From an uncultured Bacteroidales bacterium (GTDB taxonomy: Bacteria > Bacteroidota > Bacteroidia > Bacteroidales > UBA4417), in the NCBI GenBank assembly GCA_903913645.1, contig CAIWMA010000067.1:1-36700 (forward strand): DNA of 36,700 nt, given 5' to 3'. The notes beneath the pieces were generated by a model that saw nothing but the letters and a program-made list of their open reading frames with translations, was not told where the DNA came from and did no database searches. Below are positions 25,551-36,672 of this stretch, piece by piece; within the stretch, counting starts at the first letter, position 1, and each line of letters begins with the position of its first letter. The translations under genes were made by a program, and so were the position numbers.

Positions 25551-27027
25551 TTATTTGTCCAGTATAAACCAGCTATCTACCAGTTCATCTTTCTGATGAC
25601 CTTCACTTAAATGGATAAATTCATTCGTGTGTTTATTGTATAAATATTCTTTATTCCATTCGAGATGATGCACGGAAACCTGTTTAATGGCATCAATAAT
25701 GTAATGAAGCTCTTCATCTGTCATGGTAGGGTGGAGGGACAGCCTAATCCAACCTGGTTTCTGTGAAAGGTCACCATGAGTTATTAGGTCGGTTATTTCA
25801 CGCGATTTTTCGTGGCTGACATCTAATAAAAAATGGCCGTATGTACCGGCACATGCGCATCCTCCCCGAAGTTGTATGCCATACTTATCGCTCAGTAGTT
25901 TTACTACCATATTAAAATGTATTCCAGCAATATAAAATGAGATGATTCCCAGTCGTTTTTTCTGGCTGTCGGCCAGGATGTGAACCCCGGGAATGCAGCA
26001 TAATTCCTTAAAAGCCACAGCAACAAGTTCTTCTTCCCGCCGCCTTATGAGTTGAGTGTTCATTTCGTTTTTCAGATTGATGCACAATGCTGTTTTCATT
26101 GCTTGCAGAAAACCAGGTGTGCCACCATCCTCACGTACTTCTATATTATCAATGAATTTATACTCACCCCATGGGTTTGTCCAGTCGACAGTGCCTCCAC
26201 CAGGAGCATCAGGAACCCTGCAATGGTACAATGACGAATCGAATATCAAAACACCGGAAGTGCCTGGTCCACCTAGGAATTTATGAGGTGAGAAGAACAC
26301 AGCATCCAGTTTTTCCATCGGATCACCAGGATGCATATCTATATCTACGTAAGGCGCTGAAGCAGCGTAATCCGCAAAACAATAACCTCCGGCTTCGTGC
26401 ATTATTCGAGCCAGTTCATAAATATGCGTTTCAATTCCTGTAACATTAGAACATGCTGTAAAAGAACCTAATTTCAGGGGTCGGTCTTCAAATTTCTTAA
26501 GTAACTCGCGCAGGTTTTCAGGATTTACAAGCAAATCTTTTCCGGGAGGAATAACTTCAACATCAGCAATGGTATGATACCACGAGGTATGGTTCGAATG
26601 GTGTTCCATATGAGTGATAAAAAACCACGGGTTTTTTACCTGTATACACAAATTCACCGGCAATATTTTTTTCGGGAACCTTAAGGTTCAACATACGCTG
26701 AAATTTCACCAGAACATTGGTCATTCCGAAGCCTGAAGTAATAAGTACATCGCCCGGACCGGCATTTACATGTTCTTTAATAATATGCTGTGCTTTGTGA
26801 TATGCTTTGGTCATCATCTGCCCGCTTTCGCAGGTTTCGGTGTGGGTATTTGCAACCCAGGGGCCGATGACTTTTGAAATCCTATCTTCAATAGGGCCGT
26901 AAAGCCTGCCGCTGGCCACCCAGTCGGCATAAATCATTTTACGAGTCCCAAAATGTGTTGTGTATTCCAGGTCATTTCCCACTATTTCCTTACGGAATTT
27001 GCTGAAGTGCTCTGCTAGGTCTGCCAT
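25551..27027 (-). pseudogene. Class V aminotransferase / cysteine desulfurase-like gene, broken by a +1 frameshift
   Basis: Two overlapping frames together form one PLP-dependent enzyme of about 491 residues. The upstream piece (ATG at 27027; reads MADLAEHFSKFRKEIVGND and continues through TSGFGMTNVLVKF) is in frame down to GKKPVVF. The downstream piece supplies ITHMEHHSNHTSWYH, GGYCFADYAASAPYVDID, the PLP-lysine motif FFSPHKFLGGPGTSG, and a C-terminal domain with RGGCACAGTYGHFLLD. The break falls in a run of six A on the plus strand (26619-26624); five would restore the reading frame exactly. Without correction the upstream piece ends 48 codons later, at 26563. All key residues are otherwise intact and there is no other lesion, so the break is either recent or a base-calling error. 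The natural substrate is unknown; the family includes cysteine desulfurases and related lyases. Confidence 0.8.
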
Positions 27028-27278: not shown

Positions 27279-30155
27279 TTACTCCCCTGCAGCAATCTGA
27301 ACTTCCATGATTTCAATTTCGCCTGTTTCAACAGAAATGCTTATCCAATTATTTTCCTCGCGGAACCACTTGTCCTGGATGCTGATGCTGATAAGGTAAT
27401 CGCTGAGGGAGGATTTATCAAAATTACGAAGTACGATACCTCCGTTTTTAGTTTCATCTTTCCCATAATTCAGGTAGACTTTTGGAACGGTTCGGCCGGT
27501 TGAACGTGCTTTAAGAAGGATGTAATTGTTTTTACGTAAACTCGGTTCGATAGCAGAAAAAGGAAATTTCTTTTCATTTCCTCTGCCGATAATCACTTTT
27601 TGCGAATAGAGATTTAAAATAGAGTGATCTGACATGTACTTTCTGATTTTACTGATTTGGAGTTCAGGATAAGCATCACCTGGATTCATGCTAGCTGCTG
27701 TTTCATACGCATCAATGGCCTGATCATAAACCTTTGAGTTGAATAGTTTGTCGGCGTTTTCGATTGCTTTATTATATTCAGCCGAGCGTGTCAAGGCTAT
27801 TCCCTCGGTAATATTTTTTATTTCAATCATACGTTGTTTTGGATAAGATTCAGCTGGTTTTATTGCTGAAGCTTTGGCGAAAGATGCATTTGCGCCAGAA
27901 TAATCTTTCATCCCGAAAAGCTTGTCACCTTCTGTAATGGCTAATGTATAATTATTATCAACGGATTGCGAGCCTAAAAGTATTTCATCGATTTTCACGA
28001 TTTGGTCCTGAGGGTATTTTTCATTCTTTTTTATCCCAACTGCTTCTGCGTAAGCAGTTTTCGCTCCGTTATAGTCTTTGCTCGAAAACAACTGGTCTCC
28101 GGTTTTTACTGCCATTGCATATTTATCATTTTTCTTTTGCTGATTAGCTGTTTCTGCCTTTATTTCAGTTATCTGTTCAAGTGGATAAAGCTCTTGAGGC
28201 TTTATTTTATTAGCATCCTGGAATGAGGTTAATGCAAGGCTAAAATTACCGGCAGCCAGTGCTTTTTCTCCTGTTCTTAGTGCCTGGGCATAATTTTCAG
28301 CATCTGTTGATTGTTTTAGAAGGATTGAATTTATCTCAGTAGTTTTACTTAATGGGTACGTTTCATTAGGCTTAATAGTAAGGGCTTGCTTATAAGCGCT
28401 TAATGCATCGGTGTATTTCAATGATGAAAAGAGTCTGTCGCCATTAGAAATTGCGGAAGCATAGTTTTCATCTTTGTTTTTTGATAATGCGATCAAACCT
28501 TGAGCATCTTTTATTTTCTGCTGAGGATAGGTTTCAGCAGGTTTAAACCCGAGGGCTTTGTTATAGGATAATATTGCTTCCTCAAACCTGTTTCCATTAA
28601 ATTGAATGTCGGCTTCAGCAACAGATTTACTGTAGTTTTCATTAACTTCTTTCTGCTTAGCTGTGAGCGATGTTATTTCTTCGATTTTTTGAGAAGGGTA
28701 CTTTTCTTCAGGAAACAGAGCTAAAGCAGTACGGTATTCAGTCAGGGCGGCATCATATTTTTTTTCATTCAACGACTGATCTCCATTTTTTATAGCAATA
28801 TCATAAGCGTTTTTATGGAAAATATTTAATGAGAGTAGCTTTTCAATTTCTGCTATTTTAGTTTTAGGATAAGTTTCAGAAGGTTTAATATCTGATGCTG
28901 ATTTAAATCCTGCCAAAGCGTACTCGTAATCAGCTGATTTTAATTCAATTTCGGCACTTGCAAGGGCAGCATCATATTTTTGCTGAGTTAATTGCTGAGC
29001 TAGGTCGTTTTTGATTTTTACAAGCATTTCTTTCGGATAGGTGGCATCTGGTCTTGTGTTGATCGCTTCCTGGTACTTGAGGCTGGCATCGTTAAATTCA
29101 CGGTTTTTATAAAACTGATCCGCAAGTTCAATGGATTTATCATAGGTATCCGCAGGTGTTTTTTTACTATTTGCATTGATATCTTTCGCTTCCTTGTTGT
29201 TTTCTTTCGTATTCAGGTCAGCAGCTGCTACAGCAATAGCAACTTGATTTTTGTTGCTTGCGCTGTTTGTTTTTTCTGATGGAAGTTTGTCAGCGGAAGC
29301 TTTATTTGTTGTTTTCTGCCCGGCTTTTGCGATATATTCAACTTGAAGTTTTTTCGCATCAGTAATTTTTCTATTGACAAATTTTACATTTGGATGCAAT
29401 TTGAGAGCGGCTTCGTAAAACATGATAGCATGGTCAAAATCATTTATGGCAAGTTCCCTGTCTCCAGAGGAAAGAGCAAGATTAAAATTAGCCATATCTT
29501 CCGGATCAATGTAACTGGCACTTAACTCCAACAACTTGTCTTTGGGTAATTGAGCAGTTGGGTCGATTAATGTAGCCTTCTGATATTCGGCCTTTGCTTG
29601 CTGATATTTTTTTTGCTCATTTAAGCTATCTGCTTTCAGAATCGTTTTTTGAAAAAGTGCGTTTTTTGAATCAGGTGATGCGTCCAGTTTGGAATTTATC
29701 TCTTCTATTTTTGTAGTGGCATAGTTATAATCGGGTTCTGTCTGATACGCTTTTTCATAAAGGAGTAATGCTCCTCCATAATCTTCAATAGCCAAAGCAT
29801 AGTCGGCCTGAGCGATTATAGTTTTATAGCTGTTATTGCTGTTTTTACTTGGTGTATGTGATGAAACTTTTGGATCACCCCCTCCTTCAAGTAATTTTTT
29901 TGTTATATCGATTTTATCTGCAGCATAATTATATTCGGGTTCAACCTCGTGAGCTTTTTCGTAGAGTTTTAATGCTCTTGCATAATCTCGTGCTGCAAAT
30001 GCCTGGTCAGCCTGTTTTATATACGTTTTATACGTTCCAGGTGTTTCTGTATTTTGAGCAAAACTTGGTTTAGTACAGGATAGTAAAAATAGGATTCCAA
30101 TAATAGCAAACTTAAAGTTTGTTGAGAATCGATTCTGTAAAATATGATTCTTCAT
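27279..30155 (-). CDS. Secreted giant TPR-derived repeat protein (958 residues), smaller paralog
   Basis: The signal sequence (about 1-34, ending SFAQ; LLSC at 24-27 could alternatively be a lipobox) indicates export. Residues 42 to about 845 form 13 units of about 57 residues. Each unit has a TPR-like pair of helices (pattern A/G-D, Y17, A20, Y/F24, A27, P32 within the first 34 residues) plus a third helix starting YPxxxIxEI. Between units 4 and 5 is a 56-residue Asn/Lys/Ser/Ala-rich linker (282-337). A C-terminal domain of 110 residues (849-958) is beta-rich and ends EVQIAAGE. Units 2-11 correspond one by one to units 1-11 of the larger paralog except at the linker. The gene follows the LolD gene by 127 bases on the same strand. 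A scaffold or binding role is inferred; no catalytic motif is present. Confidence 0.85.
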   Translation of the reverse strand: MKNHILQNRFSTNFKFAIIGILFLLSCTKPSFAQNTETPGTYKTYIKQADQAFAARDYARALKLYEKAHEVEPEYNYAADKIDITKKLLEGGGDPKVSSHTPSKNSNNSYKTIIAQADYALAIEDYGGALLLYEKAYQTEPDYNYATTKIEEINSKLDASPDSKNALFQKTILKADSLNEQKKYQQAKAEYQKATLIDPTAQLPKDKLLELSASYIDPEDMANFNLALSSGDRELAINDFDHAIMFYEAALKLHPNVKFVNRKITDAKKLQVEYIAKAGQKTTNKASADKLPSEKTNSASNKNQVAIAVAAADLNTKENNKEAKDINANSKKTPADTYDKSIELADQFYKNREFNDASLKYQEAINTRPDATYPKEMLVKIKNDLAQQLTQQKYDAALASAEIELKSADYEYALAGFKSASDIKPSETYPKTKIAEIEKLLSLNIFHKNAYDIAIKNGDQSLNEKKYDAALTEYRTALALFPEEKYPSQKIEEITSLTAKQKEVNENYSKSVAEADIQFNGNRFEEAILSYNKALGFKPAETYPQQKIKDAQGLIALSKNKDENYASAISNGDRLFSSLKYTDALSAYKQALTIKPNETYPLSKTTEINSILLKQSTDAENYAQALRTGEKALAAGNFSLALTSFQDANKIKPQELYPLEQITEIKAETANQQKKNDKYAMAVKTGDQLFSSKDYNGAKTAYAEAVGIKKNEKYPQDQIVKIDEILLGSQSVDNNYTLAITEGDKLFGMKDYSGANASFAKASAIKPAESYPKQRMIEIKNITEGIALTRSAEYNKAIENADKLFNSKVYDQAIDAYETAASMNPGDAYPELQISKIRKYMSDHSILNLYSQKVIIGRGNEKKFPFSAIEPSLRKNNYILLKARSTGRTVPKVYLNYGKDETKNGGIVLRNFDKSSLSDYLISISIQDKWFREENNWISISVETGEIEIMEVQIAAGE
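27612..30032 (-). repeat. 13 tandem 57-residue TPR-derived units (smaller paralog)
   Basis: Unit borders by protein residue: 42-109 (with linker), 110-166, 167-221, 222-281, then the low-complexity linker 282-337, 338-393, 394-450, 451-507, 508-564, 565-621, 622-678, 679-735, 736-793, and 794 to about 848. The first two units are near-duplicates of each other (YKTYIKQADQAFAARDYA versus YKTIIAQADYALAIEDYG). The repeats are degenerate at DNA level. Confidence 0.85.
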
Positions 30156-30204
30156 AGAGCACTTTGATTTTTAATAGTGTTAAAAAAGTTTCAATCAATA
30201 TTAC

Positions 30205-30212
30205 CAAAAATA
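30205..30212 (-). promoter_or_regulatory. Candidate -7 element of the 958-residue gene
   Basis: Minus-strand TATTTTTG matches TAnnTTTG, 49 bases before the ATG. No TTTG at the proper -33 distance, so a weak call; the gene may instead be read from upstream. Confidence 0.3.
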
Positions 30213-30282
30213 TCAGTTCAAAAAGCAGGAGTAATTGTTTATTTATTATGGCTGTTTAAGTTGGTGCTTGCTACACCAATTA

Positions 30283-30933
30283 TCACATGATCCTGCCATC
30301 CACCATCATTAGTTTACGGTCACTCATGTCGGCAAGCTCCTGGTTATGAGTAACTATTACGAAGGTTTGATTGAATTTTTTGCGAAGTTCAAAAAACAAT
30401 GCATGCAGTTCTTTGGCATTGGCTGAATCGAGGTTTCCTGAAGGCTCATCGGCCAGTATTACCGATGGATGGTTCATCAGGGCGCGTGCTACGGCTACTC
30501 TTTGTTGCTCACCACCTGAGAGTGCTGAAGGCTTATGTTCAGCCCGATCGGTGAGATGCAGGAAATCAAGCAGTTCTAGCGCCCTTTGCTTGGCTTCCTT
30601 CTGCGAAATTCCAGCTATAAAGGCCGGAATACAGAGATTTTCGTGCGCAGTGAATTCAGGTAATAAATGATGAAACTGGAATACAAACCCGATATTCCTG
30701 TTTCTAAACGAGGCGAGTCGTTTTTCGCTTAGCGATGACACGTCCTGATTATCAAACGAAATAGAGCCTGATGTAGGATTGTCGAGCGTGCCTATAATCT
30801 GTAGCAATGTGGTTTTACCGGCACCTGATGCACCAACAACCGATACTATTTCTCCTTTGTTAACTTCGAGGTCAATACCCTTCAGTACTTCGAGAGTTCC
30901 ATATGATTTGTGAATATTTTTTCCGGATATCAT
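30283..30933 (-). CDS. lolD: LolD-type ABC transporter ATP-binding protein
   Basis: A 216-residue ABC ATPase. Walker A is [11 protein letters not shown] (34-44), the Q-loop is [16 protein letters not shown] (Gln86), the signature is [15 protein letters not shown] (138-152), Walker B is VILADEP (158-164) with the D-loop SGNLDS, and the switch His196 lies in VTHNQE. The [12 protein letters not shown] segment is a hallmark of LolD, the ATPase of the LolCDE complex that releases lipoproteins from the inner membrane for transfer to the outer membrane, rather than of MacB or FtsE. No LolC/E permease gene is in the window, as is common in Bacteroidetes where lolD is separate. It lies 180 bases after the giant 1852-residue gene and 127 bases before the 958-residue gene, all on the minus strand. 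Confidence 0.9.
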
Positions 30934-31113
30934 AAAGTGATTTCTGATTACAAATATACAAGATATTCAATGAGGAATTGTCATTCTTTCCCTTAAAAGG
31001 AGTTTCAGTAATTCAAGGTTTCTGGTTTCGGTTTTTTGCTAAATCGCCACGTTCTACCAGTCGCTCCTTGCCCAGTCGCTCAATTTCTTCATTAATCAAA
31101 AAAGCTTAGAACG

Positions 31114-34100
31114 CTACTCATCCCCGGCAGCAATCTGAACTTTCGTGATCTCAATATCACCGGTTTCTACAGATAAACTGATCCAGTTATTGTCTTCGCG
31201 ATACCATTTGTCCTGTACGCTTATACGGATTAAATAGTCGCTGATGGTTGATTTATCGATACTTCGAAGTACAATTCCTCCATTCTTGGTGTTATCTTTT
31301 CCGTAATTCAGGTAAACTTTCGGAGCAGTTTTCCCGGTTGATCGAGCTTTAAGTAGAATGTAATTGTTCTTACGCAGGCGAGGTTCAATGGCAGAGAATG
31401 TGAACTTTTTTTCATTGCCTTCGCTGATTACAAATGTTTGAGAGAAAAGATCCTGAATGGCGTGATCCGACATATACCTTCTGATTTTTCCTATCTGCTG
31501 CTCGGGATAGGAGTCGCCCGGATTAATTTTAGAAGCTGTTTCATAGGCATCTATTGCCAGGTCGAAAACTTTGGTATTATATAACTTATCTGCTTCTCCA
31601 ATTGCCTTGTTATATTCAGCTCTGCGCGCCAGTTCTATTTCCTCTATAATTTTATTGATTTCAGTAATTCGTTGTTTTGGATAGGTTTCACCAGGTTTTA
31701 TTCCTGAAGCTTTCGTGAAATCAGAAATAGCACCTGAATAGTCTTTTGCCCCGAACAGCCTGTCACCATCAGCGATATATGATGTGTACATTTTTTCCAT
31801 TTCTTCCTTTTGAGCGAGTAGCGCTACATTGATATCAGATATTTTTGTTTTGGGATATGCCTCACCAGGCTTAATTTCCAGTGCATTCTGATATGCATTT
31901 AATGCCTCCATCAGGTTTTTGGAAGCCAGTTTGCTATCGCCCAATGCGATTGCCTTGGAATAATTCTCATCAATAGCTTTTGTTTCCGCTTTAATTGCAG
32001 TTATACGATCTTGAGGATATTTTTCTGCAGGCTTTATTGTAAGAGCCTCTTCATATGATTTGATTGCTCCGGGAAGATTTTTTGAATTGTACAGATCAGT
32101 AGCAGCTGTGATTGCTTTTGTATAATTCTCGTCTTTCAGTTTTGATACAGCCAGTATTCCATTGATTTCCAGAATTTTTTCTGAAGGTAATTTTTCTATA
32201 GGTTTAAGTGTATTGGCTTTGGTGTACAAACTGACTGATTCATCATATTTGCCGGCTTTGTACCGGGAATCAGCATCATTTACCAATTTCTGATAATCTT
32301 CATCCAGTTTTTTCTGTTCGGCGATTAGGCTATTTATACGGGTAATTTGTTCCTGCGGATATTTTTCTGCAGGTTTTATTGTACTTGCACGTTGGTAAGG
32401 CTCCAGAGCATCAAGGTATTTCTGCGATGTGAAAAACTTATCAGCCAGGACCAATGCCTCCTGGTAACGGGTATTTGCAACTTTTTGCTTATCCATTACA
32501 GACTGAATTTCTACCATCTTTTGCTTTGGATAGGCTTCAGTTGGTTTAACCGAATTTGCTTTTGTAAATGCAATAAGAGCGTTTTCATAATCACCGGCAG
32601 TCATTTTAGTATCACCCTCAGATATAGCTTTATCATAAGTTTCCTGAAGCATTTTCTGATCGGCAATTAGCTTCTCTGTTTCAGCTATTTTTTCGGCAGG
32701 ATATTTTTCGGTTGGTTTCAATGCTTGGGCTTTCCTATATTCCTGTAAGGCTTCATGGTACTTTTTGCCGTCAAAAAACTTATCGGCAGTGGCTAAAACG
32801 GCCAGGAAATTGTCATCCAGTTTCTGCTGTTCGGCCATCAGGGTATTTATTTTTTCAACCTGGTTTGTCGGATAGGATTCGGCTGGTTTTAATGAAGAAG
32901 CCTTTTTGTAAGATAGCACGGCTTCAGCGTATCTTTTTGCGGCAAAGTATGTATCTCCCTCTGTGATTGCGCTGGTATAGTTTTGTTCTTTTTGTGCCGA
33001 CGCAGAAAGTATCTCATCAATTTCTGCAATTTTATCTTTCGGGAGTTTTTCCTGAGGCTTCAGTATACCTGCACTGGAATATAGTGCCCGGGCTTCAGAA
33101 TGCTTACCAGCTTTTAACTGGATATCAGCATCCGTAATAGCTTTCTGGAAATCATCATCCAGTTTTTTTTGTTTGGCCAGTTGCTGATTGATTTCCGTTA
33201 CCTGATCCTGCGGATATTTCTCCGATGGTTTAATTTTAAATGCGCGTTGATAGGGTTCGAGTGCTTCGGTGTATTTCTTGTCGGCAAATAATTTGTCAGC
33301 AAGTACAATTGCTTCCTTGTAAGCCTGGTCTTCGGCCTTGTTTTTATCTAGAATAGCCTGGATTTCTCTTATTTTCTGGTTCGGATATGCTTCGCCTGGT
33401 TTAATGGATTTAGCACTGTTGAATGAAGCCAAAGAATTTATATAATCCTTTCCTGTAAAGAACTTATCGCCATCAGCAATAGCTTTAGTATACGAATCCT
33501 GTATTGCTTTTAGGTCAGTTATTTGTTTTTCAGCTTCAGCAATCTTATCCGTCGGGTATTTCTCAGATGGTTTTAAAACTGAAGCTTTCTTAAATTCAAT
33601 GATAGCATTCTCATAATTCTTAGCACTAAAAAGTTTATCCGCTGATGATATTGCTGCTATATAATCAGCATCAAGCTTTGTTTGTGTGGCAAGTTGAGTA
33701 TTGATCTTGTCAACCTGTGATTTCGGATAGGTTTCGGCAGGTTTTAAAGCACTTGCTGCATTATATGAGCCGATTGCTTCAGCATATTTCTTCTCTTTAA
33801 AGAACGAATCGCCTTCCTTGATTGATGTAGAATAGTTTTGTTCTTTTTGCGCAGATGCAGAAAGTATTCCATCTATTTCGGCAATCTTATCTTTCGGGAG
33901 TTTTTCCAGCGGTTTCAGAGCAGCAGCGGCGGAATATAAATTCCTTGCTTCATCATATTTTCCTGCTTTCAGTTGAATATCGGCATCACTTATTAATTTC
34001 TGATAATCGAATTCCAGTTTTTTCTGTTCGGCAAGCGCCTGGTTGATTTTTTCAACCTGATCCTGCGGATATTTCTCCGATAGTTTGATTTTAATTGCGC

Positions 34101-36672
34101 GTTGATATGGTTCGAGCGCTTCGGGGTATTTCTTATCGGCGAAAAATTTGTCAGCCATGGCAATAGCTTCCTGGTAAAGTTGTCCTTCAGCTTTATCTTT
34201 GTCAAGAATGGCCTGAATTTCAGTGATTTTCTGGGTTGGATATGCTTCGCCGGGCTTTGCTGCATTTGCAATTTTGTATGAGGCGATTGAACTTACATAA
34301 TTTTTTTCTGTAAAGAACTTGTCGCCAGCAGCAATTGCTTGGGTGTAAGCTTCCTGAGTTGCTTTTATGTCAGCAATTTGCTTTTCAGCTTCAACTATTT
34401 TTTCTGCAGGGTACTTCTCCGATGGTTTCAAAACCTGTGCTTTTCGAAAATCAATAACAGCATCTTCATACTTCCTGGCAGTAAAAAGCTTATCTGCAGA
34501 CGTGATAGCAGTTAAATAATCTGCATCCAGCTTTGCTTGGGCTGCAAGTAATCCGTTAATCTTTTCAATCTGATCTTTTGGATACGATTCTACAGGTTTA
34601 ATTAAAGATGCTTTTTTGTATAAGACAATTGCTTCATTAAGTTTTTGACTGTTAAAATTATTGTCGCCTTCAGCTATTGCTAGCGAATAATTTTCGTCCA
34701 CCACCCGTAAATCTCCCAATATTTTATTGATTTTACCAACCTGGTCCTGCGGGTATTTTTCATTCTTTTTTAATCCCGAAGCTTCTGCATAGGCGGCCAG
34801 GGCATGGCTATATTCTTTAGCTGAAAACAATTGGTCGGCTGTTTTTAATGCAGTCGAGTATTTCTCATCACTTTGTTGCTGAGTTGCTACAGTGACCTTT
34901 ATTTCAGCAATTTTATCCTGTGGATATTGTTCAGAAGGTTTAATCTTCTGCGCCTCCTGAAATGACTTGATGGCCACTTCTAAATTTCCTGACGAAAGCG
35001 CTTTATCTCCTTTTTCAATTGACTTGGTATATTTATTAAGTAAAAATGAAATTTCGGATATTTTACTTATCGGATACCCTTCGAAAGGTCGTACAGAGTT
35101 GGCAAGTTCAAAAGCAGCCAAGGCTTCGTTGTATTTGGATTCAGCTAACAGCCGGTCGCCGTCGGCAATTGCCGTGGTGTAACTGTTATCCTTGCTCTTT
35201 GAAGCGGCTAATTTGATTTGTGCATCTGTAATTTTTTGTTGCGGATAAGTTGCTTCCGGTTTAAATTCAAGTGCTTTGGTATAAGCAGGAATTGCATCTT
35301 CGAATTTATTTTTATTAAATAGCTTATCGGCTTCAGCAACAGATTTCAGGTAATTATCATCAGATTCTTTCTGCTTACCTGTGATAACGGTTATTTCGTC
35401 TATTTTTTGAGAAGGATACTTTTCAGCAGGTATTAATGATAAAGCATTCCTGTAAAAACCTAGGGCAGCATCGTATTTTTTATCGTTCAACGACTGATCT
35501 CCATTTTTTAATGCAAGGTCATAAGCTTCCTTGCGGGAAGTATTGTCGGCTATGAGCTTTTCAATTTCCGTAATTTTAGTTTTCGGATAATTTTCTGAAG
35601 GTTTGATAGCCAACGCAGATTTAAAACCAAGCAAGGCGGCTTCGAAGTCTGACGTTTTCAAAAAGTTTTCGGCGTTTGCCAGGGCTGCATCATATTTTTG
35701 CTGGTCCGACTGAAGCAGCGATTCGCCTAATTTTGTTTTTTCAAGCATTTCTTTCGGATAGCGGGCTTGCGGTTTTGCATTGAGCGCTTCCTGGTATTTT
35801 AGTCGTGCATTGGCAAAATCACGGTTGATGTAAAACTGATCAGCCTGCTCTATGGATTTATCGTAATTATCCTGTAGTGCCTTATTTTTCTGACTAAAAT
35901 TGTCTATTTCCTGGATCTTTTGCTTGGCATACTGGTTTTCAGGAGTCAGGTCCAATGCTTTCTGGTATTCATCACGGGCCTCAGTTCGTTTTTCAGCCTG
36001 GAGTAAGATATCCGCCGTTGCAATATTTTTTGCCGACTGTTCAGCCTTTGATTTATATTCAACTTGTTGCTTCTTGGCAGCTGTAATTTTATCTTTCAAC
36101 GTTTTGTTATTCGGCTTTACTGCAAGGGCTGTTTCATACGAAAGTACAGCTTTGTCAAAATCATGTTCGGTAAGTGCTTTATCGCCAACAGCTACAGCCT
36201 CATTAATAACAGCTATATCGTCCGGATCTGAATACAACGTACTTATTTCCGATAACCGGTCTTTTGGAAACTGTGCTGAAGGGTCAATCGAAAGAGCTTT
36301 TTGGTATTCTGTTTTAGCTTTCGCATAGTCTTTAAGTTTGAATAAGTTTTCTGCTTTCAGAATTAAATCCTCAAATAACCTGGACTTAGAATCAGGAGTG
36401 GCATCCAGAATTTTATTTATTTCGTTGATTTTACCAGTGCTATAGTTGTCATCAGGCTTGGCCTGGCTGGCTTTTTCATAAAGTACCAATGCTCCTGCAT
36501 AATCTTTTGCGGCTAACGCCTGGTCAGCTTGTTGAATGATTGTTTTATAGCCAGCTCCAGTCGTATTACTTTGCGAAAAGCAAGGATTCGTATAGGATGC
36601 TAAAAAAGTTATTCCAATAAAAGCAATGAGAATATATATATGTAATCGATTCAGGGAAATGCATTTCTTCAT
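31114..36672 (-). CDS. Secreted giant TPR-derived repeat protein (1852 residues), larger paralog
   Basis: An N-terminal signal (about 1-34, cleavage near CFSQ) precedes 30 units of about 57 residues (42 to about 1741) and a C-terminal 111-residue domain (1742-1852, ending QIAAGDE). Each unit combines a TPR-like helix pair with an additional helix, typified by ADKLFADKKYTEALEPYQRA followed by KPSEKYPQDQV. The composition is rich in Ala, Lys and Glu, with few Cys. Units 12-16, 17-21 and 22-26 are three successive copies of one five-unit block. The protein could exceed 100 nm if fully extended, but TPR superhelices would be much shorter. There is no catalytic motif, no T9SS sorting domain and no membrane anchor. 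The start lies 28 bases from the window end, so the promoter is outside. A scaffold, tether or adhesion role is inferred from architecture only. Confidence 0.87.
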   Translation of the reverse strand: MKKCISLNRLHIYILIAFIGITFLASYTNPCFSQSNTTGAGYKTIIQQADQALAAKDYAGALVLYEKASQAKPDDNYSTGKINEINKILDATPDSKSRLFEDLILKAENLFKLKDYAKAKTEYQKALSIDPSAQFPKDRLSEISTLYSDPDDIAVINEAVAVGDKALTEHDFDKAVLSYETALAVKPNNKTLKDKITAAKKQQVEYKSKAEQSAKNIATADILLQAEKRTEARDEYQKALDLTPENQYAKQKIQEIDNFSQKNKALQDNYDKSIEQADQFYINRDFANARLKYQEALNAKPQARYPKEMLEKTKLGESLLQSDQQKYDAALANAENFLKTSDFEAALLGFKSALAIKPSENYPKTKITEIEKLIADNTSRKEAYDLALKNGDQSLNDKKYDAALGFYRNALSLIPAEKYPSQKIDEITVITGKQKESDDNYLKSVAEADKLFNKNKFEDAIPAYTKALEFKPEATYPQQKITDAQIKLAASKSKDNSYTTAIADGDRLLAESKYNEALAAFELANSVRPFEGYPISKISEISFLLNKYTKSIEKGDKALSSGNLEVAIKSFQEAQKIKPSEQYPQDKIAEIKVTVATQQQSDEKYSTALKTADQLFSAKEYSHALAAYAEASGLKKNEKYPQDQVGKINKILGDLRVVDENYSLAIAEGDNNFNSQKLNEAIVLYKKASLIKPVESYPKDQIEKINGLLAAQAKLDADYLTAITSADKLFTARKYEDAVIDFRKAQVLKPSEKYPAEKIVEAEKQIADIKATQEAYTQAIAAGDKFFTEKNYVSSIASYKIANAAKPGEAYPTQKITEIQAILDKDKAEGQLYQEAIAMADKFFADKKYPEALEPYQRAIKIKLSEKYPQDQVEKINQALAEQKKLEFDYQKLISDADIQLKAGKYDEARNLYSAAAALKPLEKLPKDKIAEIDGILSASAQKEQNYSTSIKEGDSFFKEKKYAEAIGSYNAASALKPAETYPKSQVDKINTQLATQTKLDADYIAAISSADKLFSAKNYENAIIEFKKASVLKPSEKYPTDKIAEAEKQITDLKAIQDSYTKAIADGDKFFTGKDYINSLASFNSAKSIKPGEAYPNQKIREIQAILDKNKAEDQAYKEAIVLADKLFADKKYTEALEPYQRAFKIKPSEKYPQDQVTEINQQLAKQKKLDDDFQKAITDADIQLKAGKHSEARALYSSAGILKPQEKLPKDKIAEIDEILSASAQKEQNYTSAITEGDTYFAAKRYAEAVLSYKKASSLKPAESYPTNQVEKINTLMAEQQKLDDNFLAVLATADKFFDGKKYHEALQEYRKAQALKPTEKYPAEKIAETEKLIADQKMLQETYDKAISEGDTKMTAGDYENALIAFTKANSVKPTEAYPKQKMVEIQSVMDKQKVANTRYQEALVLADKFFTSQKYLDALEPYQRASTIKPAEKYPQEQITRINSLIAEQKKLDEDYQKLVNDADSRYKAGKYDESVSLYTKANTLKPIEKLPSEKILEINGILAVSKLKDENYTKAITAATDLYNSKNLPGAIKSYEEALTIKPAEKYPQDRITAIKAETKAIDENYSKAIALGDSKLASKNLMEALNAYQNALEIKPGEAYPKTKISDINVALLAQKEEMEKMYTSYIADGDRLFGAKDYSGAISDFTKASGIKPGETYPKQRITEINKIIEEIELARRAEYNKAIGEADKLYNTKVFDLAIDAYETASKINPGDSYPEQQIGKIRRYMSDHAIQDLFSQTFVISEGNEKKFTFSAIEPRLRKNNYILLKARSTGKTAPKVYLNYGKDNTKNGGIVLRSIDKSTISDYLIRISVQDKWYREDNNWISLSVETGDIEITKVQIAAGDE
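32125..32979 (-). repeat. Five-unit supermodule, copy C (855 bp, residues 1232-1516)
   Basis: Units 22-26. The most divergent of the three copies (for example the fifth unit reads YQKLVNDADSRYKAGKYDES), suggesting it is older or under different constraints. It ends at ILAVSKLKDEN before the shorter unit 27. Confidence 0.82.
32980..33834 (-). repeat. Five-unit supermodule, copy B (855 bp, residues 947-1231)
   Basis: Units 17-21. Its fifth unit and that of copy A agree at 46 of 57 positions and the fourth units at 44 of 57 by hand alignment, versus much lower similarity between adjacent units. Confidence 0.85.
33835..34689 (-). repeat. Five-unit supermodule, copy A (855 bp, residues 662-946)
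   Basis: Units 12-16. The copy opens with YSLAIAEGDNNF and closes with ILSASAQKEQN. Each of the five units matches the unit at the same position in copies B and C better than its own neighbours. Confidence 0.85.

What the first reader, a model, noticed from the sequence alone, without database searches (positions are those of the whole stretch)
32125..34689. A higher-order 5 x 57-residue supermodule repeated three times in frame
Seen: units 12-16, 17-21 and 22-26 of the 1852-residue protein align position by position (46/57 and 44/57 identities for units 16/21 and 15/20 by hand), each block being exactly 285 residues or 855 bp, while adjacent units differ strongly. The blocks show a fixed internal order, with EGD, SAD, xGD, xAD and DAD openings and the LPKDKIAEID signature only in the fifth unit. 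Inference: growth by unequal crossing-over of a five-unit block, perhaps because five units make one superhelical turn or one ligand-binding period.
Basis: seen in the sequence. Interest (0 to 1): 0.75.

Follow-up and report, generated by a model that had tools for sequence, protein, structure and literature searches.

The report
Five-unit block repeated inside rod protein
A long, probably exported helical repeat protein of uncultured bacteria grew by repeatedly copying a block of five repeat units, so related species carry different numbers of blocks; this is a clear bacterial example of a known way that repeat proteins grow.

Summary
Residues 662-1516 of the 1852-residue protein (window 32125-34689, minus strand) are three in-frame copies of a 5 x 57-residue block: units five apart share 35.5 of 57 residues on average, most other lags 18-21, and no shuffle of unit order matched it. 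Relatives explain it. In one genus, complete genes have 20 to 35 units; seven of ten show lag 5 as the best lag, with two, three or four tandem blocks. The last block is shared by all species in the tree, while inner blocks group within species in three of them, and in two of these three are far less diverged at silent sites than the two species' single-copy flank: recent duplication or homogenisation. The structural reason offered for five is not supported: arrays of 57-residue units without blocks show no lag-5 signal, and other families expanded by one, two, three or four units; the pitch could not be measured. The units are TPR-derived but carry an extra helical stretch, suggesting an extended rod. 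Block-wise growth of repeat proteins is known (nebulin, cadherin; PMC1553488).

The parts
31114..36672 (-). 1852-aa TPR-derived repeat protein (P): signal-peptide-like N-terminus (by eye), 30 units of about 57 aa, C-terminal beta domain
   Evidence: Pfam TPR_2 E 1.3e-47; orthologues of 1851-1859 aa have a similar N-terminus
33835..34689 (-). block 1 (units 12-16, residues 662-946)
32980..33834 (-). block 2 (units 17-21, residues 947-1231); 70% protein and 73% DNA identity to block 1
32125..32979 (-). block 3 (units 22-26, residues 1232-1516); 55% protein identity to blocks 1 and 2; groups with the last block of the other eight genomes in the tree
34690..36549 (-). units 1-11, before the blocks; units 1, 2, 5-8, 10 and 11 have a best partner in the paralogue Q
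31444..32124 (-). units 27-30, after the blocks; units 29-30 pair with the last two units of Q
31117..31461 (-). C-terminal domain of about 115 aa, predicted mostly beta; no Pfam family above cut-off, no NCBIfam match
   Evidence: found in 81 of 393 sampled genomes of the order
27279..30155 (-). paralogue Q, 958 aa, 13 units and the same C-terminal domain, without the block array
30283..30933 (-). LolD-like ABC ATPase; a homologue precedes the rod gene in 19 of 25 related loci inspected
   Evidence: TIGR02211 275.8 bits, below its cut-off 307.75

Best explanation
P is an exported helical rod protein built from TPR-derived 57-residue units and ending in a beta domain. In an ancestor of this genus's P lineage, five neighbouring units (855 bp) were duplicated in tandem. 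From then on the best DNA match inside the gene lay at an offset of 855 bp, so later unequal exchange or conversion added, removed or homogenised whole five-unit blocks in frame. The inner copies turn over while the last block is kept, and copy number now ranges up to four blocks between species. SHOWN: the blocks and their extent, differences of whole blocks between species, grouping of inner copies by species in three genomes, low silent divergence of inner copies in some genomes, and fewer protein-changing than silent changes. INFERRED: homologous recombination as the mechanism; export (signal peptide judged by eye); that each block lengthens an extended rod (36-residue helix minus 14-residue return helix, about 33 angstroms per unit, about 16 nm per block); that the protein is a periplasmic or surface spacer that presents the C-terminal domain.
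For: Three blocks at lag 5. Orthologues in the genus: 35 units (four blocks), 30 (three), 25 (two, G007), and 27 in G004 versus 22 in its sister G006. Block tree: last blocks of all nine genomes together 99/97; inner blocks of G002 (97/90), G005 (97/93) and G011 (97/93) group within species. Silent divergence of inner copies in G002 and G011 is 0.45-0.47, against 2.40 between these two species in the single-copy flank; G013 0.68 against 1.60 for the G000-G013 flank. dN/dS 0.07-0.23 in the nine pairs of blocks with measurable dS outside L095. In L095 units 10-14 equal 15-19 (57, 57, 57, 57, 55 of 57) with dS 0.01. Unit = helix of about 36 residues + helix of 14.
Against: Gene conversion alone could homogenise copies, and the tree cannot separate it from repeated duplication. 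Not all inner copies are recent: G000 b1-b2 dS 1.26, G008 1.33, G004 1.76, and G005 b1-b2 and L094 are saturated at silent sites although G005's two group together. Silent distances above about 1.5 are near saturation. Three of ten complete genus arrays do not have lag 5 as best lag: G006 (lag 3, p 0.024), G014 (lag 4, with lag 5 close, z 3.8 and 3.7) and G001 (none, p 0.16), so other step sizes occurred too. The lag-5 tract of L094 spans eight units, not a multiple of five. All sequences are metagenome bins, and short-read assembly can mis-count near-identical copies. The rod shape rests on a model with pTM 0.27.
Confidence: 0.72

Rival explanations
1. Five units form one superhelical turn or one binding period, so only five-unit additions preserve the surface geometry and are kept by selection.
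For: Five-unit duplications seem to have begun more than once: the P lineage; a phase-shifted one in G015 (units 9-13 match 14-18); a two-block G004 beside a one-block sister G006; and family f76 (L094, L095), whose block units score at most 6 against the genus's position profiles. The fresh L095 copy is exactly five units.
Against: Arrays of 57-residue units without blocks show no lag-5 signal. Other proteins expanded by 1 (L154, L171, L173), 2 (L046, L065, L185), 3 (L155, L156) or 4 units (L162, L181). The predicted unit does not look stacked like a TPR. G004 could be explained by loss in G006. An older weak five-unit similarity in the genus (G014, G006) could underlie the G015 event.
Confidence: 0.13
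2. The array is an ancient feature under plain vertical descent: three blocks were present in the ancestor and the copies have only diverged since.
For: The last block is shared across the nine genomes of the tree (99/97), and six genomes have three or more blocks on one contig (G000, G013, G002, G005, G008, G011); in the window's own genome b1-b2 is as diverged at silent sites as b1 is from its G013 orthologue (1.26 and 1.31).
Against: Inner blocks group within species in three genomes; silent divergence in G002, G011 and G013 is below that of the single-copy flank; G007 has two blocks and G011 four.
Confidence: 0.08
3. Assembly artefact: repeats collapsed or expanded by short-read assembly.
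For: All genomes are metagenome bins; the L095 copies are nearly identical.
Against: In the window the copies differ at 27-38% of bases, far beyond misassembly, and lengths of 1851-1859 aa recur in separate bins.
Confidence: 0.02

Closest known systems
Block-wise expansion of domain repeats (nebulin seven-domain unit, cadherin peak at five; Bjorklund et al. 2006, PMC1553488: abstract and the sections on duplication patterns and duplication sizes read)
   Same: Several neighbouring units are copied together, often in the middle of the array, seen as a peak in unit similarity at a fixed lag.
   Different: Nebulin and cadherin are, as I recall, eukaryotic; that paper names TPR among families with similarity decreasing by distance and common single domains, whereas here TPR-derived bacterial units move in fives.
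TPR solenoid proteins (Pfam TPR_2, TPR_11; designed consensus TPR superhelices)
   Same: Sequence profile of each unit matches, and part of the unit is predicted as a helix-turn-helix hairpin.
   Different: Unit is 57 not 34 residues; an extra helical stretch merges into a helix of about 36 residues, so hairpins are predicted far apart.
Spectrin-like rods (recalled, not tested)
   Same: Long helix linking successive helical bundles, extended rod.
   Different: No sequence relation was tested or seen; units are about half the size (recalled).

Membership tests
TPR repeat family | Match to TPR profile above curated cut-off | tested here: met
   TPR_2 156.4 bits versus cut-off 27; TPR_11, TPR_1 and TPR_8 also above
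TPR repeat family | 34-residue unit of two helices, stacked into a superhelix | tested here: not met
   Unit is 57 residues with helices of about 36 and 14 residues. Stacking: the 50 listed Foldseek alignments to solved helical-repeat proteins have rmsd 41-92 angstroms and TM at most 0.15; this second part is low confidence, since the model has pTM 0.27.
Block-expanded repeat proteins (nebulin kind) | Significant similarity peak at one multi-unit lag | tested here: met
   Lag 5 z 8.8, reached in none of 1000 shuffles
Block-expanded repeat proteins (nebulin kind) | Expansion in the middle of the array | tested here: met
   Blocks are units 12-26 of 30; units before and after are not part of the pattern, and several pair with Q
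Block-expanded repeat proteins (nebulin kind) | Copy number varies by blocks between relatives | tested here: met
   Two blocks in G007, three in G000, G013, G002, G005, G008 (and G003 over two contigs), four in G011
T9SS sorted cargo (C-terminal sorting domain) | Por_Secre_tail or related C-terminal domain | tested here: not met
   Nine C-terminal domains scanned: no Pfam family above cut-off, best DUF1093 E 0.015; the window's domain has no NCBIfam match at E 0.01. A protein elsewhere in the window and one in L076 do carry the sorting domain.
Carbohydrate-binding modules | Beta-sandwich fold with ligand site | tested here: inconclusive
   Predicted beta strands; Foldseek rows include several carbohydrate-binding modules among unrelated proteins, all with low TM; no ligand site tested

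The most novel reading that the evidence does not exclude
The five-unit block is a length quantum: selection for stalk length in steps of about 16 nm (one turn of a long-helix rod) makes lineages independently and repeatedly duplicate exactly five units, so the gene acts as an adjustable molecular ruler for how far the C-terminal domain stands from the cell.
Probability: 0.1. Interest if true: 0.65.

Novelty: new member of a known kind. Interest (0 to 1): 0.36.

Why it matters
It is a well-resolved natural series, in one bacterial genus, of a repeat protein changing by multi-unit blocks, with two, three and four tandem copies and both old and recent ones. Such series let the mode of repeat growth (exchange versus conversion, inner versus end copies) be measured. 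The family has a C-terminal domain of its own without a curated family, present in 81 of 393 sampled genomes of the order, and awaits a function.

Tried and rejected
A five-unit geometric constraint was tested indirectly on arrays without blocks and found no support (nine 18-unit orthologues used, others such as L139 left out because they were not in that table). A common origin of the f76 five-unit blocks with the genus blocks was tested with position profiles and not supported. The weak lag-6 signal of the 18-unit proteins (p 0.012; lag 3 p 0.016; 12 lags tried) was not followed. Literature: six searches; only the titles and abstract starts of the rows listed were seen (15 of 16, 2 of 2, 15 of 160, 12 of 31, 12 of 46 and 2 of 2), and none of those is on this family or on five-unit TPR blocks; most subscription papers are not held. 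One search was a script with a syntax error, rewritten.

Full report
WHAT WAS CLAIMED AND WHETHER IT IS THERE. The window is the whole of contig C67 of its genome, a 5.7-Mb assembly in 593 contigs. The named records of its relatives are metagenome bins titled Bacteroidetes, Bacteroidales, Lentimicrobiaceae or Lentimicrobium. ORF 31114-36672 on the minus strand encodes 1852 residues and starts 28 bases from the contig end; orthologues have a similar N-terminus. A position-specific scan cuts it into 30 units, nearly all 57 residues apart. Mean identity at lag 5 is 35.5 of 57 (10 pairs) and at lag 10 31.2 (5 pairs); lags 1-4, 6-9, 11 and 12 give 18.0-21.2, lag 13 gives 25.0 from two pairs and lag 14 gives 19 from one. 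In none of 1000 shuffles of unit order did the best lag reach the observed score. Small corrections: the LPKDKIAEID signature has decayed in the third copy, and the second unit of the third copy opens TAD.

WHAT SURROUNDS IT. The neighbouring ORF 27279-30155 (Q, 958 aa) is a paralogue. Of its 13 units, ten have a single clear best partner among P2, P5-P8, P10, P11, P29, P30 and P1 (which two Q units match, Q1 and Q2); Q4 fits nothing well and Q9 has no single partner; P12-P28 have no counterpart of their own. A tree of the C-terminal parts places Q inside the P lineage with moderate support (87/88), suggesting that Q was copied from P and lost, or never had, the blocks. Of 25 related loci inspected, 19 have a LolD-like ATPase before the rod gene and 18 a class V aminotransferase after it, not always as the next gene; some of the others are cut by contig ends. 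In the window the ATPase lies between P and Q. Several relatives have a DUF5916 protein upstream. These neighbours do not reveal a function.

HOMOLOGUES. Of 16 genomes held for the family (one genus), 13 have the C-terminal domain; G015 has the array on a broken contig; G009 and G012 gave no match to P. Unit counts for the ten complete genes: G011 35; G000, G013, G002, G005 30; G004 27; G007 and G014 25; G006 22; G001 20. G008, G003, G010 and G015 are cut by contig ends. Mapping units onto P and onto profiles of the five block positions gives four blocks in G011, three in G000, G013, G002, G005 and G008 (and G003 when its two contigs are viewed together), two in G007, two in G004, one in G006 (clear at positions 2-4), and isolated matches in G014 and G001. 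Lag 5 is the best lag in seven of the ten complete arrays; G006 peaks weakly at lag 3 (p 0.024), G014 at lag 4 with lag 5 close behind (z 3.8 and 3.7), and G001 has no significant peak. G015 carries a five-unit duplication of different phase: units 9-13 match 14-18 (44, 36, 38, 32, 37 of 57).

HOW THE BLOCKS EVOLVED. A maximum-likelihood tree of 24 blocks from nine genomes puts the last block of all nine in one group (99/97). The other blocks group by species in G002 (97/90), G005 (97/93) and G011 (three blocks, 97/93); in the G000/G013/G008/G003 group they are mixed and partly unresolved. Silent divergence is low for G002 b1-b2 (0.47), G011 b1-b2 and b2-b3 (0.45, 0.46) and G013 b1-b2 (0.68), against 2.40 for G002-G011 and 1.60 for G000-G013 in the single-copy C-terminal flank, and 1.78 for the last blocks of G002 and G011. 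It is not low elsewhere: G000 b1-b2 1.26 (its b1 differs from G013 b1 by 1.31), G008 1.33, G004 1.76; G005 b1-b2, L094 and the window's b3 are saturated. So first and last block are old, and inner copies have been renewed recently in some species only. Protein changes are held back (dN/dS 0.07-0.23 in nine block pairs with measurable dS, within and between species; the near-identical L095 pairs give 0.38 and 0.48). In L095, of another family, units 10-14 equal 15-19 (57, 57, 57, 57, 55 of 57) and the DNA is 100% identical over long stretches: the freshest case, exactly five units, subject to assembly doubts. Its units 8-9 also resemble 13-14 (51, 52), and the lag-5 tract of L094 spans eight units, so these arrays have a more complex past than whole-block steps.

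IS FIVE SPECIAL? The C-terminal domain occurs in 81 of 393 genomes sampled from the order; I fetched 60 stretches from these, in addition to earlier loci. Of 107 repeat proteins or fragments, 83 had at least ten units and were tested. Lag 5 is the best lag with no shuffle reaching it in 12 of 83 rows: ten from this genus and two from family f76 (L094, L095). Six other rows reach that level at lag 4 (L062 of this genus, L162, L181), 2 (L185) or 1 (L171, L173); L155, L156 (lag 3) and L065 (lag 2) have p 0.001-0.002. Rows are not independent, since many are orthologues. Block units of f76 score at most 6 against the genus's position profiles, and G015 and G004 add further five-unit events, so five probably arose more than once; G004 may instead reflect a loss in G006. 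Against a geometric reason, nine 18-unit orthologues of the same 57-residue unit, averaged, show no lag-5 signal (p 0.18), nor do units 1-11 of six genus arrays (p 0.56). Once a first five-unit duplication exists, the strongest DNA match lies 855 bp away, which by itself makes later changes come in fives (inference).

WHAT THE PROTEIN IS. Pfam places the units with TPRs (TPR_2 E 1.3e-47). Predicted structures (282 residues, pLDDT 93, pTM 0.72, 966 residues, pLDDT 83, pTM 0.27) give each unit as a helix of about 36 residues and one of 14; one long helix in the middle of the larger model is broken in two. Foldseek aligns the large model to helical-repeat proteins, many of them TPR proteins, but in the 50 rows shown with rmsd of 41-92 angstroms and TM of at most 0.15, which I read as hairpins much further apart than in stacked TPRs, though a poor overall model could also do this; it fits 54 minus 21 = 33 angstroms per unit. 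Hence an extended rod, about 16 nm per block, is my inference, not a measurement. The C-terminal domain is predicted as beta strands; nine copies match no Pfam family above cut-off and the window's copy no NCBIfam family; Foldseek rows for the model that holds it include carbohydrate-binding modules among many others. The N-terminus looks like a signal peptide (by eye). I consider a periplasmic or surface spacer most likely, untested.

COMPARISON WITH WHAT IS KNOWN. Bjorklund et al. 2006 (PMC1553488; abstract and the sections on duplication patterns and duplication sizes read) describe expansion by several domains at once, often in the middle of the array, with nebulin moving by seven and cadherin peaking at five, and name TPR among families whose similarity falls with distance. 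Persi et al. 2016 (PMC5120217, abstract read) report faster divergence between copies within a protein than between orthologues; here, at silent sites, inner copies in G002, G011 and G013 are less diverged than single-copy flanks between species, a different measure. The rows listed by six searches hold nothing on this family. The finding is therefore a good new example of a known kind.

Noticed in passing
window 25551-27027 (-): The class V aminotransferase beside Q is split over two overlapping frames (370 aa matching the later part of the profile, and 154 aa with no Pfam match); relatives mostly have one ORF of about 490 aa, so it is broken here or carries a sequencing error.
   Followed up: partly
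window 31117-31461 (-) and relatives: The 115-residue C-terminal domain matches no Pfam family above cut-off, yet occurs in 81 of 393 sampled genomes of the order.
   Followed up: partly
window 27279-36672: The LolD-like ATPase lies between P and Q here, but before P in relatives such as L072, hinting at a tandem duplication of an ATPase-rod pair.
   Followed up: no
L173, L171: Single-unit arrays: offset 57 identity 0.78 over 837 residues (L173) and 0.74 over 511 (L171) in the same protein family.
   Followed up: no
L181: Nested expansion with peaks at both two and four units.
   Followed up: no
L185: A 2378-residue member with a 111-residue two-unit repeat, 0.78 identity over 365 residues.
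   Followed up: no
G007:C1:12791-12946: A 64-codon open frame 87% identical to the last 52 residues of P, probably a remnant of a paralogue.
   Followed up: no
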